A stretch of DNA of 22,719 nt from Dicyema japonicum (Eukaryota; Dicyemida; Rhombozoa; Dicyemidae): positions 329,322 through 352,040 of the forward strand of contig RDEW01000047.1 of assembly GCA_011109175.1 (NCBI GenBank), read 5' to 3'. Position numbers and translations under genes: made by a program. This document shows, piece by piece, positions 2,212 through 17,280 of the stretch. Within the stretch, counting starts at the first letter, position 1. The number at the start of each line of letters is the position of its first letter. The notes under the pieces are model-generated. The model did no database searches. It saw only the letters and a list, made by a program, of their open reading frames with translations, and was not told the DNA's origin.

Positions 2212-2922
2212 CCGTATTTGCCGAAGTATAAGTCGACCTTTTTCAATCAAAATTGACCTAAAAAAATCGACCTCGACTTGTACACCGAGTCATGAAATTC
2301 AACTTCGTATTCATTGCTTCAAATATGATGGTAATTACTACACTCTCACAAAAGAAAATTTAAATGCAACAACACTGATGTTGCCGTTATTCCTGGTGCA
2401 CTAACAAGTGTTGTGCAGCTACTTGATGTTTCTTTGAACAAGCCGTTCAAAGACAGATTGAGAGAAAATTGGAGTAATTGGATGATAGAAGGCGAAAAGC
2501 AGTTTACTAAAGGGGGAGCTATGAAAGCACCCTCGTTAGAAATAATAACAGGATGGATTAAACAGTCGTGGGATGATGTGTCGCTGTCTACTGTGGAACG
2601 CTCCTTTAAGAAATGCTGCATTTCCAACGCTCTCTATAGGACAGAAGACGACCTTATCTGGGAATAGGAGGAAACTGATGATAAAGAAGACCAAGAAGAT
2701 GCCCTTTATGACAACAAACCTTTATGGAAATGAATGGATGGAACGAGCTTTTTGGAAATAGTGACGATGAAGACGGATTTTTATAATTCTAATTTATTGT
2801 TTCTTAATTAAAAATAAATCACTTTCTAAGAGTGTTCATTGTTGTTAGTCTCTCTCGGCGCGTAATATCACAGGGTTACAAAGTAAATAGTAGGCGGTCG
2901 ACTTATACTCCAACAAATACGG
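2212..2922 (+). mobile_element. deleted pogo/POGK-like DNA transposon with both terminal repeats
   Basis: The left terminal repeat (2212-2238, beginning CCGTATTTGCCGAAGTATAA) is matched in inverted orientation at 2896-2922 (GGTCGACTTATACTCCAACA onward, ending AATACGG). TA dinucleotides at 2210-2211 and 2923-2924 form the target duplication. Between them, about 2365-2667 keeps one open C-terminal transposase segment of about 100 residues, containing VIPGALTSVVQLLDVSLNKP, FTKGGAMKAP and SFKKCCISNAL. This is the signature of the vertebrate/invertebrate POGK-like Tigger lineage: the third catalytic D lies in LLDV, and the region after it ends in DDLIW. The helix-turn-helix and the first two catalytic residues are deleted, so the copy is non-autonomous. 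This terminal repeat differs from that of the element at 1-913, so the two are separate families. Confidence 0.88.
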
Positions 2923-4811: not shown

Positions 4812-5715
4812 TCAATTTGGCCTGTAAACAATCTCACTAACAGTCGAGACAGAATCCGAATCAAAATATGATCGTATGTGGTAAGGAAAGTACTGTGGTC
4901 CATCAATATTACTCCTAAAGTGATGACCTGGTCCATAATACGTATGCATTAAATGTCTTCTCATTGGTGACCGAGAGTAATACCTAACACTAAGCATTAA
5001 TTACACATAAACTGATGAAATGTATTAATTTGGCACATATCCAATAAATTTCTCCAATCAACACGGGGATCTACCATAATAACAAATACTACCATATGGA
5101 ACACGTGCTCTACGTCTGTTATTAGAGTGGACCACATTATTTAATGTTGAAATGTGTGGTTTACGACAACTTTTCCTTTCAGAAATAGATTCATCACGTC
5201 CATTTTTAAATACACCTCCAACAGAGTCGACAATATGTTCAATGTAGTTATTAATGATAGCAGACGGACAGTATCCTGTGATTGGACTCCTGCAGAGAGG
5301 ACAACAATTTGAGTTGTCTAGTTGTGTTTGAGCAGTCCATTCCTCGACACAGGAACGACAGAATGAATGTGAACAGTTGAGAGTAACAGCCTTCATTAAA
5401 TTAATGAGGCCATTACATCAATAAAAATTAGCTGACAAACGGTGCAGGTCATTTCCTTTTGAAGCGTGGATATTAGTAGACTGCACGATTCTTCAGATAT
5501 TTTAGGAGTCGATTTCTTAAGATGCATCAAATTTTGTTGCAATTCACATTTCTAATAAGGTCATATATAAGCAATATTGGACAGCTGAAATTACTAATTC
5601 TGACCGCATTATATTCAATTAATTTTCCTACCTTTAAATGAGCCTTTAATCCATGACGTTTTGATAAAGCTTGTAGTCTTTTGTAGCTTAGTTTCATTAT
5701 CTCTGTTCTCTCCAT
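4812..5715 (-). CDS. RNF8-like C3HC4 RING-finger protein with SAP-like N-terminus, five exons
   Basis: Likely ubiquitin E3 ligase. The model is join(5548-5715, 5417-5515, 5093-5390, 5007-5070, 4812-4983), about 266 residues. The introns are 26 nt (5391-5416), 22 nt (5071-5092), 23 nt (4984-5006) and a less certain 32 nt (5516-5547). The N-terminus MKLSYKRLQALSKRHGLKAH resembles a SAP-type DNA-binding motif (compare NUSAP1). A full C3HC4 RING follows: TCTVC, then AVTLNCSHSFCRSCVEEW after splicing, then CCPLC. The RING and the helix after it (AIINNYIEHIVDS) resemble RNF8, but no FHA domain is present. The C-terminal tail is rich in Arg, Tyr and Ser. The loop between the sixth and seventh zinc ligands is longer than usual. 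ATG at 5715 was chosen because a TATA-like box lies 37 nt upstream. The start exon and its junction to the RING exon are the weak points. Confidence 0.75.
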
Positions 5716-9518: not shown

Positions 9519-10284
9519 ATGCCAATATATACTCCCACAAACCAGAAAAGATTGACCAATGTAACATCTATAAAAATGAAGAAGAATGGAAAGAGATTTG
9601 AAATAGCCTGTTATCCCAACAAAATAAATGCATGGAGGAATAAAATGTAGTTAGATTACTAATACCAGAGAAAAGGAAATCGACAATGTACTGCAAACAA
9701 CCACCATATTCACAAATGTGTCAAAAGGGGAAGTCGCAAAAAGGGACCAAGTTAAGTCTGCTTTTGGGGAAATGAGTGACCTTGAAGTGTGCAAACTAAT
9801 ATTATCATCTGGGGACTTTAAGGACAACGAAAAGGAACGAACCAACAAAAATCAAAATTCGTATCGTGCAGTGGCGACGTTGGTCAGTGAGAAGTGTTTT
9901 AACCCTCAAACGAAGTTGCCTTATCCAGTCTCCACCATCGATAAGATCATGTCCACCAAACTACACTTTTCCGTCAATCCCAATCAGTCCATAAAACAAC
10001 AGGCAGTCCAAGTAATCAGGAAGATAAAAGAACTCAACATAATTCCCGTAGAAAGGGCTGGAATGCTCATCAAGGTGACATTTGATGGTATTGACGACAA
10101 TCTTATTCAATCAGTGATAGACTTGTCTACTCAAGTTGTTACTCGTGATATCACTCAATTGGTACTTTTATGGATTATTTAGACGGTTGTTGTGGAACCT
10201 GAGGTTTATAGGCAGGTCCTCTCATTGGTGGAGCCTGTTAGAGGATGTTCTGTTGAAATTATTAATTCTAATTTTGTTGAATAA
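9519..10284 (+). CDS. SBDS: SBDS ribosome maturation protein, three exons
   Basis: SBDS works with the GTPase EFL1 to release eIF6 from pre-60S ribosomal subunits in the cytoplasm. The model is join(9519-9646, 9669-10161, 10183-10284), 240 residues against about 250 in human. The N-terminus [15 protein letters not shown] and [12 protein letters not shown] match the SBDS N-terminal domain. [36 protein letters not shown] and [17 protein letters not shown] match the central three-helix domain and the start of the third domain. Intron 1 (22 nt, GTAGTTAGATTACTAATACC then AG) contains a TACTAAT branch-site-like motif and splits an Ile codon inside the conserved [14 protein letters not shown] stretch. 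Intron 2 (21 nt) is in frame but ends in a TAG that would stop the protein. After it the C-terminus reads [18 protein letters not shown]. No damage is seen. A splice-acceptor-like TTATTTTTTAG lies 16 nt before the ATG. Confidence 0.95.
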
Positions 10285-10296: not shown

Positions 10297-11058
10297 ATGG
10301 GTGATTATGGGTTTAGTGAGGTTTATAATAAATTGGTGGTTGAGAATATTGTTAAATGGTTATATTCGAAGGTTATTTCTCAGGGGATTGTCATTTGAGA
10401 CACGTGTGTTCAGTTTTGATAAACATTTTACATTGTGGAATCAAAATCAATTCTTTGATGTTTTATTGTGTTGTTAATAGTAGGAATTAGTTGACACGTG
10501 CTGTAATTACAAAGGTATGCACCTTATTATATTTTAGATAAACTATCAGTGAGACAACTTAATAGCACAGTCACATCAATGGAGTTTTTTGACAGGTTGT
10601 TGGGGAGCAATGAGATTGTACGACCGGACGGATCCCTGGTGCAGTGTTTAGAATATTATCTTGATGATTTGTCAATCTGTAATGAACTGAGACGAGTTAG
10701 TGTGTTTATTATTAAGTTTCTTGTTGATAGCGAATCCCCAAACTGGGAATTGTACTCTGGAAACGAAAGGAATGAATTTATATTTTGTATATTCAAGCAT
10801 TTAGTATTTGGAGGACTATTATGTCAATATGATGATAGAATTGATGAATATATAAGTACAACCAAAAAGATATATAAAAAACTGATTAGGTAATATTGTT
10901 TATTACATAGTGTCTGTCTTGTTGAGGACAAGGTTACTGTTTCTTCATTAGTATTTCATTTAAATAATAATAAATGTTACTTTTATGGGATTGTGAATCC
11001 CCTAAACAGGAATGTTATTACTTTCTTCGTTAACAGGGCTTCTGTTTTTAATAAATGA
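10297..11058 (+). CDS. CFAP300: CFAP300 (C11orf70) ciliary dynein-arm assembly factor, six exons
   Basis: CFAP300 is a cytoplasmic factor needed to assemble outer and inner dynein arms of motile cilia, which would suit a ciliated animal. The model is join(10297-10371, 10400-10459, 10484-10514, 10538-10695, 10717-10889, 10911-11058), 214 residues against 267 in human. The introns are 28, 24, 23, 21 and 21 nt. Family-like blocks are VFSFDKHFTLW, MEFFDRLLGSNEIVRPDGS, FIFCIFKHLVFGGLLCQYDD, ISTTKKIYKKLI and, after the last intron, VTVSSLVFHLNNNKCYFYGI followed by VNPLNRNVITFFV. Removing the stop-free 21-nt intron at 10696-10716 restores exactly the human spacing between the ELRR and ER residues. 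The N-terminus is shorter than in vertebrates and the middle region is compressed. It begins only 12 nt after the SBDS stop on the same strand, with no AG between stop and ATG. The last codons contain AATAAA. Confidence 0.88.
11050..11055 (+). promoter_or_regulatory. AATAAA inside the last codons of CFAP300
   Basis: The hexamer covers the final Asn and Lys codons immediately before TGA, as it overlaps the stop of SBDS. It is the only good polyadenylation signal close to this gene end. Confidence 0.45.
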
Positions 11059-11862: not shown

Positions 11863-14113
11863 CTACCGCCTGAAGCTTCCGAATGAAGAAGATAAATTAA
11901 ATTGAGGTCGTTTTCTAAAATATAAAATTACAATAACTTAATATAGATGAACACACCTAATGAAATTCCAAGAACAGCGACAATTCCAAAGAATATTCCA
12001 ACACCAAGTTTAGTTTTATTAGAACCTTCAACTTTAATACAAAAATAAACTATTCATTGATGCAGCATAATTAACGGAATCTAAAAATACATAAAAATGT
12101 ATAAACGATATCCAACACAGACTGCTATGTGTTTCTCATTACATCTTGTAGAAACCCATTTTCCATTTTTATCAACAGTAATGCATACAATTTCGTCATC
12201 ATTATATTTTGGTTCGTTGGGAGCCCAAAGAGTAGTCGACTATTTTTAGTAAAAAATAAGTTACTGGAGCATCTCCCAACCATGTGAGAGTTGTGTCATT
12301 CCATAATATTCTATAATCCATATAGAATCTTTGATTTTTAATTTCTAAATTATTTTATATAATAACCTTTATTAAGTTTACTAATAAAATATGTGGACTC
12401 TGTTTTGACCATAGATAAACCAAATTGAGAACAAATTCTTGCAGAATCGTGGTAATTTAATAGTTTTCCGAACATTGTATAAGTTTTCCCGCTCATTTTA
12501 ATAGAATAGGTTTGATTTTTAACATCTAAAATATTATTAAATTTTATACGAAAAAATTTGTTTCTGCAGTTAATGTTGGAATAATTATCTAAGTTATAAA
12601 TTTATATAACAATTGTCGTCATTTTTGTAACAAATAAATCTTGTGTTTCGACAGAAATCATTTATCCATTTTCCTGAAGAAAACTTGGCATAAACGCACC
12701 CATAGGTTTGAGGATCTTTTGGATAGCCAACATCCCAATTTGTAAAATTCTAAATAAATTAATATATACTGAATCATTATCATCGCCTCTCATGAGAACA
12801 TGGTCCAAATAAACTGAACCAAAATTAATTCCAATGTCAAAATCAACGTTTTCTTAAATATTATATTTTAGTAAAACCAAAAACAGCGCAATTTTCTGTA
12901 GAATTGAATGGGGCATAAAGAATTGCGTTTCTTTTATCACAAATTGACAAAGCTTTATCACGGGAAGATAAAAAGTCGAAAACATAAAATGAGTTGTTTT
13001 GGAAGTATAAAATTTGCGAAAAATAGTCTAAAATAAGAATTTGATGAACGATGCTTGTTCTCTTCGTTACAATTCTTAGGAATTGTTCCTTGAACAACAG
13101 AATCTGGATAATCAAAAATGATAACCAGATTCACAGATTATATGTCCAGCTTGATTGCAATCTACTGTTGAAAATTCCCCATTTATAAAGTCCCTCATAA
13201 CACATTCTTTGTCAAGGTGATTGAGGGATGACCATGGAAGATATCTCTTTATATTAAGGATCAACTAATACAGCCAAATAATTTTTTTCTGTCATGAATC
13301 GGTTTTGTCCCAAATTTATCATACCGACGAAAGAAGGTCCGTAAACAATTTCTGATAGGAAAGTAAACTCTTACCGTGAATCGCACAATTTTCTGATCCA
13401 TCGTTGGGAATAAAAATATATCCATCATGATCTGAATGGCAGATTTGACGTGCAGTTCCATAATCTCTATTAACCTTATAGATGTAGTATGTGTGTCCTC
13501 TAAAGGATACCATACTATCATAAGGGACTGTTATATTATTATAAATTAACGATTTAATATTTTGTCAGTTATATTGATTCCATTTGGTGCAATATTATCT
13601 CATAGTTAGTTAAACTTTAACCATCTTCACAAATCCAATATCCTTTGCGCCATTGGTAAGCAACCTTCCATTTTCCAGAACTAGCCAGCATTTGGACTCC
13701 TTTCCAATAGTTAGGTGGGTTATCATTTTCAATAAAATTGGAATAAGTCTCAAATAATATATAACTGCTACAATAATTGTCTGTCTATGTTCAGAATAAA
13801 AGTTTTCTGTACCAGACCCAAGTCTGTATACTCCAATTGTTCTATTTCTATAAATAATACCTAAAGTAAGTAAAAAGTAATCACTTGCAATAGCATCATT
13901 TTCATGTTGGTCTTGAATATCAATAGAGTAGTGACCATCGTCTTTACAATAAAAATATCCATCATAAATGTACCAATCAAATGCTGACATTAAGTAAGAG
14001 TGTTTATTGTAATTGAAGGTTTGCCCATACCAAATTACTAATATTTATCAAAATATACGTTCTTGAAGTGAATCAGAAAAAAACAAAAATAATAAAATGA
14101 AAGACATTTTCAT
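11863..14113 (-). CDS. type I membrane protein with four C-type lectin-like domains, 19 exons
   Basis: Predicted cell-surface receptor of 612 residues. Exons on the minus strand, high to low: 14113-14059, 14037-13885, 13860-13772, 13748-13622, 13598-13551, 13527-13375, 13351-13272, 13246-13126, 13103-13050, 13027-12878, 12852-12770, 12749-12611, 12588-12550, 12525-12367, 12344-12265, 12239-12107, 12080-12051, 12031-11938, 11914-11863. Introns are 19-26 nt. Order: signal peptide (MKMSFILLFLFF), CTLD1 (about 19-141), CTLD2 (158-275), CTLD3 (294-417), CTLD4 (431-554), transmembrane segment (573-595), 17-residue basic tail starting KKRP. CTLD hallmarks include NFTNWDVGYPKD with GKWINDFCRNTRFIC (CTLD3), LWAPNEPKYNDDEIVC with GKWVSTRCNEKHIAVC (CTLD4) and FSTVDCNQAGHIIC (CTLD2). 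CTLD1 lacks the two inner cysteines. No domain has a complete EPN/QPD plus WND calcium set, so classical sugar binding is doubtful. The donor at 13271 could be 13265 instead (19-nt intron). Confidence 0.88.
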
Positions 14114-15956: not shown

Positions 15957-17280
15957 ATGAGGAAGTGTTCTAGATTATCTTATGATAAAAAAAGAAATTA
16001 TAAATTATGTTATTCATAACTCTTCTCTTAGTTTAAGACGTGTCTCAGAAATTTTTTCAACGCGTTTCAAAAAATCAATTTCGAGACGTGCAATAAATGA
16101 TCTTAACTTGAATAAAGAGAAGATTCTTGAAATTAATCCAATTTATGGGACAAGTTCTCGTTTTTCGAAACTCAGATTTTCATCAATTGATACTGAATTC
16201 ATTACCTGGATGGATTACATGGAATCAATTGGAGTTTGCCTCAATGATGAGATAATTTTATCGAAAGCAACTGAATTTGCTGCATTAAATGGATTCTCTG
16301 AATTCAAATCCAGTAAAGGATGGCTGGAAAAGTTAAAAAAAGGCACTATGTGAAATTACGAATTTTCCATGGTGAATTAGGATATACTGTGGATGAGTTT
16401 AAAATAGAAATTGAAGACTTTAAAAAATTATCTCCTCAAAAATAAATGAACATGGTGCCGAAAATGTTTATAATGCTGACGAAACCGGTGTGTTTTACAA
16501 GACTATTCATTCAAAAAGTGTATACAGGAGACGCAGATCAGGACAGAAATTAGTTAAAAATTGGTTTAAAATTTTTAAGCTAATCTTCAGATTTTCATTA
16601 ATGCTTTTCGGAAATATGACTGGATCTGATAGAAGAACCCCATTGATGATTGGAAAGTATTAGAAACCAAGCTGTTTCAAAAACATGTACGTTGATAAAT
16701 ATTTACAATACTACAATTCTTTAAATGCTTGGATGAAAATGTAAATTTTTAACGAATGGTTGTATAAATGGGACATGAATCTCAAACAAAAACAAAGAAG
16801 AGTACTTTTGGTTGTAGACCATTGTACTTCTCATAAAATAACAATCGAATTGAGTATGATAGAAATTTTATATTTACCAAAAAACACGACGACAGTGCTT
16901 CAACCAATAGATCAAGGAATTATTAGATCATTCAAATTCCATTTTAACAAATTTAAATTTAAACATATAATGGAAAAAATAAATTGTGATGAAGAAAATA
17001 TTGAATGTTATAAAAAATTAACGGTAAAAGATAGAGTCTTAGTTTTTCATCTTGCTTAGAAAAATGTGTCTGGCTAAAATAAATATTTTCAGCTCGCCAA
17101 ATGGAAAAAAGCATTAAAGAACTTACAAAGGGAGACCAAAAAATAAAGAATTTTGAACAAATTAATAATAAATTAATGATATCGGATCACATTCAAGAAG
17201 AGGAGTTTGTAGACTTTACGTACTCTGAAATTGACGAACTTCTTGAATTTCTTTTATTATTTATTGATTTCTGAATTTAG
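15957..17280 (+). mobile_element. nearly full-length but broken pogo-type transposase
   Basis: The best-preserved DNA-transposon copy here. ATG at 15957 starts MRKCSRLSYDKK. A frame change then leads into 15982-16353, an open N-terminal part with a helix-turn-helix (NSSLSLRRVSEIFSTRFKKS) and a CENP-B/Tc5-type second DNA-binding domain (FITWMDYMESIG, ILSKATEFAALNGF, SSKGWLEKL). The catalytic core follows in several frames: VYNADETGVFYK near 16470-16500 (first Asp), RVLLVVDHCTSHK near 16800 (second) and TTTVLQPIDQGIIRSFKFHF near 16890-16930 (third), with 30 residues between the second and third. An acidic tail follows (HIQEEEFVDF, about 17190-17220). Stops near 16443, 16660 and 16740 and frameshifts make it inactive. 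Clear terminal repeats were not found; TACAGTTTACCCTCC near 15820 is a weak left-end candidate. Confidence 0.85.

What the first reader, a model, noticed from the sequence alone, without database searches (positions are those of the whole stretch)
11863..14113. Undescribed four-CTLD membrane receptor assembled from phase-matched exon modules
Each lectin domain is coded by three exons with the same intron phases: a phase-1 intron just after the EN-A-I-like segment, a phase-0 intron in the middle, and phase-1 introns at both borders. Domains are separated by small linker exons, themselves phase 1-1. The whole gene is a chain of symmetric 1-1 modules, the classic signature of exon-module duplication, yet every intron is 19-26 nt. 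A signal peptide, one transmembrane segment and a KKRP tail make it a plausible surface receptor, possibly for host attachment or cell recognition.
Basis: partly seen in the sequence, partly recalled or inferred. Interest (0 to 1): 0.88.

Follow-up and report, generated by a model that had tools for sequence, protein, structure and literature searches.

The report
Dicyemid-type four-lectin-domain surface receptor family
This is a real gene with very small introns, in a small animal genome that looks like a dicyemid's, for a cell-surface protein with four lectin-type domains; it belongs to a family of at least 26 gene loci that probably captures and takes up molecules from the host fluid, and its tidy exon pattern is shared by many ordinary lectin genes of the same genome.

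Summary
The gene is real. The genome of the window (64.7 Mb) holds at least 26 loci of the family. In 21 paralogue models, 9 to 18 of the 18 intron positions and phases recur, down to 38% protein identity. All four domains look like CTLDs; D1 needs a profile to show it. None of 36 domains checked has a canonical EPN/QPD plus WND sugar site. The 'phase-matched module' reading is half right: the two introns inside each CTLD lie at the same alignment columns in four single-CTLD genes compared, so the layout is inherited; whether D1-D4 arose by tandem duplication is unresolved. New here: the family's extent, an outer domain D1 under weaker constraint than D2 and D3, and a recurrent F-x-x-[F/L] motif in the tail. 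'Undescribed' is doubtful: Lu et al. 2019 report a multicopy 'macrophage mannose receptor' cluster in Dicyema japonicum linked to endocytosis, probably this family (not tested). Best reading: a lineage-specific, mannose-receptor-like endocytic receptor family.

The parts
14059..14113 (-). exon 1: signal peptide MKMSFILLFLFFSDSLQE
   Evidence: model; hydropathy 2.49 in an 11-residue window from residue 3
13622..14037 (-). CTLD D1 (exons 2-4: 13885-14037, 13772-13860, 13622-13748); 2 of the 4 canonical Cys kept
   Evidence: Pfam Lectin_C 16.8 bits, below cut-off 22.6, and behind DUF3952 with 21 bits, below its cut-off 25; profile of 7 D1s hits PLA2 receptor E=6.6e-8 and MBP-C E=1.1e-6
13551..13598 (-). 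exon 5: linker 1
   Evidence: its border introns are found in 18 and 20 of 22 models, the window gene included
13126..13527 (-). CTLD D2 (exons 6-8: 13375-13527, 13272-13351, 13126-13246); most conserved of the four domains
   Evidence: Lectin_C 25.4 bits; mean pairwise identity 0.548 over 10 members
13050..13103 (-). exon 9: linker 2
12611..13027 (-). CTLD D3 (exons 10-12: 12878-13027, 12770-12852, 12611-12749)
   Evidence: Lectin_C 24.4 bits
12550..12588 (-). exon 13: linker 3 (its 5' intron is found in only 10 of 22 models)
12107..12525 (-). CTLD D4 (exons 14-16: 12367-12525, 12265-12344, 12107-12239), closest to solved lectins
   Evidence: Lectin_C 37.4 bits; surfactant protein D 3g84 E=1.3e-4
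12051..12080 (-). exon 17: stalk
11938..12031 (-). exon 18: end of stalk and transmembrane helix LGVGIFFGIVAVLGISLGVFIYI
   Evidence: 19-residue hydropathy above 1.6 only in windows starting at residues 571-579, maximum 2.64
11863..11914 (-). exon 19: cytoplasmic tail KKRPQFNLSSSFGSFRR with F-x-x-F motif, and stop codon
11915..14058 (-). 18 GT-AG introns of 19-26 nt: 14038-14058, 13861-13884, 13749-13771, 13599-13621, 13528-13550, 13352-13374, 13247-13271, 13104-13125, 13028-13049, 12853-12877, 12750-12769, 12589-12610, 12526-12549, 12345-12366, 12240-12264, 12081-12106, 12032-12050, 11915-11937
   Evidence: positions and phases compared with paralogues

Best explanation
A functional gene for a type I membrane receptor (signal peptide, four CTLDs on short linkers, stalk, one TM helix, short basic tail), one member of a lineage-specific family of at least 26 loci in a dicyemid-type genome. 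It most likely works like a small mannose receptor: the CTLD stack binds proteins or glycoconjugates of the surrounding fluid without the classical calcium/sugar site, D1 giving the variable contact, and the tail motif F-x-x-[F/L], of the shape of a Yxx-hydrophobic sorting signal, sends it into endocytic vesicles of the absorptive epidermal cells. Shown: gene structure, family, CTLD identity by profile, absence of canonical sugar sites in the members checked, purifying selection, recurrence of the tail motif. Inferred: surface location, ligand class, endocytosis, cell type.
For: Model. Family of 26 loci found by DNA and protein search, with 18 of 18 intron positions kept in L018 (65% identity), 16 of 18 in L040 and L041 (43% for L041) and 13 of 18 in L046 (38%). 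Window gene against L018: dN 0.254, dS 2.22, ratio about 0.11, dS near saturation; non-synonymous changes are significantly rarer than synonymous ones in each of the four domains. Tail F-x-x-[F/L] in 16 of 19 models that enter the tail, with inner residues changing (FGSF, FATF, FATL, FGSL, FRRL). D1 profile's best solved relative is the PLA2 receptor of the mannose receptor family; LY75 (DEC-205) scores 1.7e-5. Lu et al. 2019 name 'macrophage mannose receptor' among clusters of more than six copies in D. japonicum and tie it to endocytic nutrient uptake (PMC6736024, section 15).
Against: No transcript, localisation or ligand data. F-x-x-F is at best a weak form of the sorting motif and its role here is a guess; L040, L044 and L048 lack it. 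The N-terminal domains of mannose receptors are absent. Weak constraint on D1 fits host contact, self-recognition or plain loss of function of D1 as well. Identity of Lu et al.'s cluster with this family was not tested.
Confidence: 0.5

Rival explanations
1. Host-attachment or host-recognition receptor of the calotte or larva: the four CTLDs bind molecules of the cephalopod renal surface, and copies diversify in D1 to fit different hosts.
For: D1 has the lowest mean pairwise identity of the four domains, 0.381 against 0.548, 0.489 and 0.418 for D2-D4 in 10 members. In L046 against L049 D1 has dN/dS 0.30/0.38 while D2-D4 have 0.13/0.48, 0.11/0.78 and 0.11/0.52; in L022 against L025 D1 has 0.26/0.15, not significantly above 1 (p 0.18). 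The front cells attach to renal tissue (PMC6736024 passages).
Against: D1 is still under purifying selection in older pairs (window gene against L018 p 2.7e-5) and in L041-L040 (0.30/0.55, p 0.023). D4 is as divergent as D1 or more in comparisons with the L046 group (window gene 0.25 against 0.29 identity, L041 0.28 against 0.41). An endocytic-type tail motif is not needed for attachment.
Confidence: 0.27
2. Cell-cell recognition or adhesion receptor of the dicyemid itself, for example between axial and peripheral cells or in self/non-self recognition.
For: No canonical sugar site in the 36 domains checked, as in protein-binding CTLDs; D2 is well conserved (0.548).
Against: Large copy number with many broken copies and a weakly constrained outer domain would be unusual for a structural adhesion protein (a judgement).
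Confidence: 0.18
3. The gene model is a chance product or a dead copy: open frames joined by arbitrary GT-AG pairs in AT-rich DNA.
For: AT-rich sequence offers many GT-AG pairs, and even AA-TT gaps reach 1890.5 with 3 stops; many related copies are broken.
Against: Same 18 joins in L018, frame kept across introns whose lengths differ by non-multiples of 3, third codon positions most variable (0.253, 0.183, 0.508), shuffles score 35.5-46 against 2156.5.
Confidence: 0.02

Closest known systems
Mannose receptor family (CTLD group VI: MRC1, PLA2R, DEC-205/LY75, MRC2)
   Same: Tandem CTLDs, single TM, short cytoplasmic tail, several CTLDs without canonical sugar site (recalled); D1 profile matches PLA2R best and LY75 well; D4 matches MRC2 at E=0.0031.
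   Different: No cysteine-rich and no fibronectin type II domain by Pfam, 4 instead of 8-10 CTLDs (the number 8-10 recalled), tail motif F-x-x-[F/L].
'Macrophage mannose receptor' multicopy cluster of Dicyema japonicum (Lu et al. 2019, PMC6736024)
   Same: Among clusters of more than six copies, mannose-receptor-like annotation, dicyemid genome of 67.5 Mb.
   Different: Domain layout, copy number and sequences are in a supplementary table that was not available; identity untested. Here at least 26 loci, many of them broken.
Non-family CTLD genes of the same genome (27 places)
   Same: The same two internal introns at the same alignment columns with the same phases in the 4 genes compared; both introns found in 16 of 27 places, several of them near copies of each other.
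   Different: One CTLD in the stretch modelled; 3 of 10 checked (L009, L011, L072) have both EPN and WND; L010 reads as a secreted protein (hand reading).
Collectins (surfactant protein D, mannose-binding proteins)
   Same: Best single-sequence PDB matches, to D4: SP-D E=1.3e-4, human MBP E=2.6e-4.
   Different: Here no collagen part (none in Pfam), no canonical sugar site, membrane bound.

Membership tests
C-type lectin-like domain superfamily (PF00059) | Lectin_C profile over the curated cut-off | tested here: met
   Whole protein 78.8 bits, 4 stretches; D2 25.4, D3 24.4, D4 37.4 over 22.6. D1 alone 16.8, below, and behind DUF3952 (21 bits, below its cut-off 25); but a profile of 7 D1s matches solved CTLDs over the whole domain, E down to 6.6e-8
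C-type lectin-like domain superfamily (PF00059) | Canonical cysteine pairs | tested here: met
   In the window gene D2, D3, D4 have 5, 5 and 4 Cys including the four canonical columns; D1 keeps only the outer pair
C-type lectin-like domain superfamily (PF00059) | CTLD fold in a structure model | not testable with these tools
   Structure prediction takes only proteins that the DNA gives letter for letter in one frame; the spliced protein is outside its stated rule and was not sent
Calcium-dependent sugar-binding CTLD | EPN or QPD in the long loop and WND before the third Cys | tested here: not met
   36 domains of 9 members: no EPN; QPD strings in D2 of L046 and L049 lie at the domain's start and WND strings in D4 of seven members lie upstream of the loop, by inspection of alignments. 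Among 10 single CTLDs of the genome 3 have both motifs
Mannose receptor family (group VI) | N-terminal cysteine-rich domain and fibronectin type II domain | tested here: not met
   No such Pfam family among the three listed at E up to 1 for the 612-aa protein
Mannose receptor family (group VI) | 8-10 tandem CTLDs (recalled) | tested here: not met
   Four
Mannose receptor family (group VI) | Single TM and short tail with an endocytosis signal | tested here: inconclusive
   TM and tail present; F-x-x-[F/L] in 16 of 19 tails; function untested
Dicyemid multicopy 'macrophage mannose receptor' (Lu et al. 2019) | Sequence identity with that cluster | not testable with these tools
   Supplementary table S3 not available here
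Dicyemid genome | Very short introns, small spiralian genome | tested here: met
   19-26 nt here, 64.67 Mb; published D. japonicum 67.5 Mb, Dicyema introns mean 26.2 nt (n=16) and median 27 nt; two homeodomains followed by LTGP peptides like the spiralian Lox5 peptide (peptide recalled). Species not identified; no marker gene was compared
Gene built by tandem duplication of 1-1 exon modules | Domains of one gene closer to each other than to other CTLDs, with introns found only in the duplicated module | tested here: inconclusive
   Introns are shared with the four single-CTLD genes compared; the tree gives D1, D2, D3 and D4 as four groups but not their mutual relation

The most novel reading that the evidence does not exclude
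In an animal group that has lost most membrane receptors (two rhodopsin-family GPCR hits reported in Dicyema sp., PMC6543705 passage), a single old four-CTLD receptor has been expanded to at least 26 loci and turned into the main host-interface repertoire: a conserved D2 and a recurrent TM and tail motif carry a rapidly changing outer D1, so that new copies read different host molecules.
Probability: 0.3. Interest if true: 0.65.

Novelty: new variant of a known kind. Interest (0 to 1): 0.45.

Why it matters
Dicyemids have about 30 cells, no gut and few receptors (passages), so a large family of one receptor type is a direct handle on how they feed on, or stick to, their host. The gene is also a stringent test case for splicing: 18 introns of 19-26 nt whose positions and phases largely recur in paralogues of about 40% identity show that intron positions survived extreme shortening. 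The three-exon CTLD shared with other genes of the genome separates inheritance of an old layout from recent exon shuffling.

Tried and rejected
Homologous proteins: the 612-aa protein found none at E up to 0.001 (1922 candidates), so no outside orthologue could be compared. The path search alone missed two inner introns and varied at the 3' end (578 to 631 aa); replaced by the hand-checked join. Spliced alignment of L002, L005 and L007 used the wrong orientation and gave nonsense; the places were fetched again and aligned the right way. The first N-terminal alignment of L018 had read an intron as exon; its first 16 residues were re-read by hand and used. The letters printed after the bar in the tail list are wrong for all rows but the window gene and L050 (a script error); one search gives the right ones, and these are used. 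Positive selection on D1: dN/dS at or above 1 appears in L018-L019, L020-L021, L046-L042 (D1 models with odd introns) and in L022-L025, where D1 itself reads clean but L025 is broken elsewhere; that one is not significant (p 0.18), so not claimed. [quoted passage not shown] an abalone CTLD has exons of 118, 93 and 224 bp (passage), whose second intron would be phase 1, not 0. I recall from older work that vertebrate group II genes also split the CTLD over three exons, but found no text to check it (searches; only listings seen apart from the papers named). Primers for dicyemid 18S are not in the passages seen of PMC12953835. Dicyemid plus lectin: 4 papers listed, none on this topic by title and abstract start; dicyemid plus mannose receptor: one, Lu et al..

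Full report
WHAT IS THERE. On the minus strand from 14113 to 11863 (stop codon included) lie 19 exons joined by 18 GT-AG introns of 19-26 nt, giving 612 residues; the phases are 1,1,0,1,1,1,0,1,1,1,0,1,1,1,0,1,1,2. A path search without homology had found 13 of these introns first. The protein reads: signal peptide, D1, linker, D2, linker, D3, linker, D4, stalk, transmembrane helix, tail KKRPQFNLSSSFGSFRR. Exon sizes repeat: 153/89/127, 153/80/121, 150/83/139 and 159/80/133 nt for D1-D4.

IS IT MORE THAN CHANCE. Yes. The window lies in a genome of 64,672,829 bases in 191 contigs. A DNA search found 18 matching stretches, the window's own included, and a protein search 123 exon matches, own ones included, with 72 of 105 candidates scored. 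These fall into 26 loci including the window gene (C134; C111; C117; C115; seven on C87; C13; C164; C132; three on C62; C78; two on C148; C144; three on C159; C1; C44), a lower bound. 22 of the 26 gave models long enough to compare; C111, C13, C164 and C87:2031264 gave only pieces. Of the 18 introns of the window gene, the same position (to one column) and phase is found in 18 for L018 and L021, 17 for L019 and L020, 16 for L022, L040 and L041, 14 for L028 and L043, and 9-13 for the other 12 paralogues. The front intron (signal peptide/D1) matches in 5 of 22 models and the stalk/TM intron in 8, both in parts that hardly align; the D3/linker-3 intron in 10. Where lengths agree (6 of 18), the introns of the window gene and L018 are 0.44-0.55 identical; 10 of 18 differ in length by a number not divisible by 3; codon positions 1, 2, 3 differ at 0.253, 0.183, 0.508. 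With GT-AG the L018 protein aligns at 2156.5 without a stop; nine other dinucleotide pairs give 855.5-1890.5 with 3 to 14 stops (the best, AA-TT, 3 stops), no introns 629.5, five shuffles 35.5-46. Against L018 the window gene has dN 0.254 and dS 2.22; dS is near saturation, so the ratio of about 0.11 is rough, but in each of the four domains non-synonymous changes are significantly rarer (p 2.7e-5 or less).

STATE OF THE FAMILY. The window gene and L018 give clean models over the whole length. L040, L041 and L046 have no stop either, but the joins in stalk (all three) and linker 3 (L046) are unsure; L022 has no stop and its start is unresolved; L021, L025, L028 and L047 have no stop but need extra introns or lack parts. 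The other 12 comparable models have one or more stops. Broken copies are therefore common.

WHAT THE DOMAINS ARE. Pfam Lectin_C scores 78.8 bits for the whole protein with four stretches; alone D2 25.4, D3 24.4, D4 37.4 against a cut-off of 22.6; D1 only 16.8, and for D1 the family DUF3952 scores higher (21 bits, below its own cut-off of 25). A profile of seven D1s, however, matches solved CTLDs over the whole domain: PLA2 receptor 6.6e-8, mannose-binding protein C 1.1e-6, CD23 6.5e-6, LY75 1.7e-5. D1 of the window gene keeps two of the four canonical cysteines. No EPN occurs in 36 domains of nine members; the QPD and WND strings that the script flags in some D2 and D4 lie outside the sugar site. 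Among ten single CTLDs of the genome three carry both EPN and WND (L009, L011, L072), one EPN alone, one QPD alone, five neither, so loss of the site is not confined to this family. These four domains have probably lost classical sugar binding.

THE EXON PATTERN. In D1, D2 and D3 the phase-1 intron falls in alignment column 57 and the phase-0 intron in column 100; exactly the same columns and phases are found in the four single-CTLD genes that I compared (L009, L011, L072, L073, picked because both introns were called in them). D4 has columns 58 and 98, where the alignment is uncertain. The 31 non-family Pfam hits fall into 27 places; all were modelled (8, 20, one place in both). 16 of 27 show both introns (six, ten; L075 one residue off, L085 and L088 with a further intron; several are near copies of each other). 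L074 has none; the other ten show one, have the second elsewhere, are partial or are unresolved. In L010 I read, by hand, a signal-peptide exon joined by a phase-1 intron of 19 nt. Hence the three-exon, phase 1/0 CTLD is the commonest layout of this genome's CTLDs and must predate this gene. Phase-1 borders made the modules easy to string together, but the pattern by itself does not show duplication in this gene. In a tree of 47 domains D1 (100/99), D2 (99/94), D4 (100/99) and more weakly D3 (83/79) each form one group across nine family members, so the four-domain layout is older than the split of those members; the relation of D1-D4 to each other and to ten single CTLDs is unresolved, and the program warns of long branches.

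WHERE IT CHANGES. Mean pairwise identity over ten members (45 pairs): D1 0.381, D2 0.548, D3 0.489, D4 0.418, linker 1 0.595, stalk 0.208, TM 0.476; tail 0.386 (36 pairs). D1 is thus the lowest of the four domains on average, but against the L046 group D4 is lower still (window gene: D4 0.25, D1 0.29; L041: 0.28, 0.41). In recent pairs D1 is under weaker constraint than its neighbours: L046-L049 D1 0.30/0.38 against D2 0.13/0.48, D3 0.11/0.78, D4 0.11/0.52; L046-L047 D1 0.27/0.39 against 0.08/0.22, 0.08/0.22, 0.11/0.15; L041-L040 D1 0.30/0.55 against 0.13/0.49, 0.07/0.16, 0.09/0.24; L022-L025 D1 0.26/0.15 (not significant, p 0.18; L025 is broken elsewhere). That is relaxed constraint or change by selection; these data do not tell which. 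In the tail F-x-x-[F/L] recurs with changing inner letters: FGSF or FATF in 12 models, FATL in 2, FGSL and FRRL in one each, 16 of the 19 models that enter the tail; L040, L044 and L048 lack it at that place, and L025, L042 and L047 do not reach it. In most copies further residues follow the motif before a stop in the plain reading, whereas in the window gene it is followed by RR and the stop. The shape resembles the Yxx-hydrophobic sorting signal (recalled).

WHAT IT MOST LIKELY DOES. The genome is animal (67 homeodomain matches), with two homeodomains followed by LTGP peptides like the spiralian Lox5 peptide (recalled), and its size and introns fit dicyemids (D. japonicum 67.5 Mb, PMC6736024, passages; intron mean 26.2 nt, PMC2222250, passages; median 27 nt, PMC6543705, passages). 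The mean of 38.2 nt reported for D. japonicum is longer than here. The species is not identified. Dicyemid epidermal cells feed by endocytosis and the front cells attach to the kidney (PMC6736024, passages). Lu et al. [quoted passage not shown] That is probably this family, which makes 'undescribed' too strong; their table was not available here. I therefore prefer an endocytic receptor (0.5) over host attachment (0.27) and self-recognition (0.18); the recount did not change these odds.

LIMITS. No RNA, no structure model, no ligand. Family counts are lower bounds. The general CTLD consensus used to model non-family genes was recalled; each place was also tried with a CTLD of this genome and the better score kept.

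Noticed in passing
window 9655-10182 (+) and 10507-10893 (+): Two conserved genes near the receptor gene: SBDS (domain II 75.4 bits) and the cilia protein CFAP300 (124.3 bits) by Pfam.
   Followed up: no
window 2335-2667 (+), 15961-16353 (+), 16745-17059 (+): Pieces of pogo/Tc5-type transposases: DDE_1 46.6 and 58.6 bits, HTH_Tnp_Tc5 30 bits, on both sides of the gene.
   Followed up: no
window 5058-5417 (-): RING finger, zf-C3HC4 31.6 bits.
   Followed up: no
L017 (C111:427500-435000): Closest DNA relative of the window gene (86-94% in four pieces) but split and incomplete, looking like a recent, broken copy.
   Followed up: partly
L020 and L021 (C87): Two close copies whose D1 aligns only with an additional 20-nt GT-AG gap at the same place; either broken frames or a new intron.
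   Followed up: partly
L074 (C113:179500-181100): A CTLD in which no intron was called, in a genome where most CTLD places modelled have one or two.
   Followed up: no
G000, 67 places: 67 homeodomain matches against 16 homeobox genes reported for D. japonicum; exon-wise matches and repeats may inflate the number.
   Followed up: no
L028, L039, L040, L041 stalks: In the models the stalk of these members is a long threonine/serine-rich, mucin-like stretch, unlike the short stalk of the window gene.
   Followed up: no
window gene D1: D1 scores better against Pfam DUF3952 (21 bits, below cut-off) than against Lectin_C; probably chance, given the profile result.
   Followed up: partly
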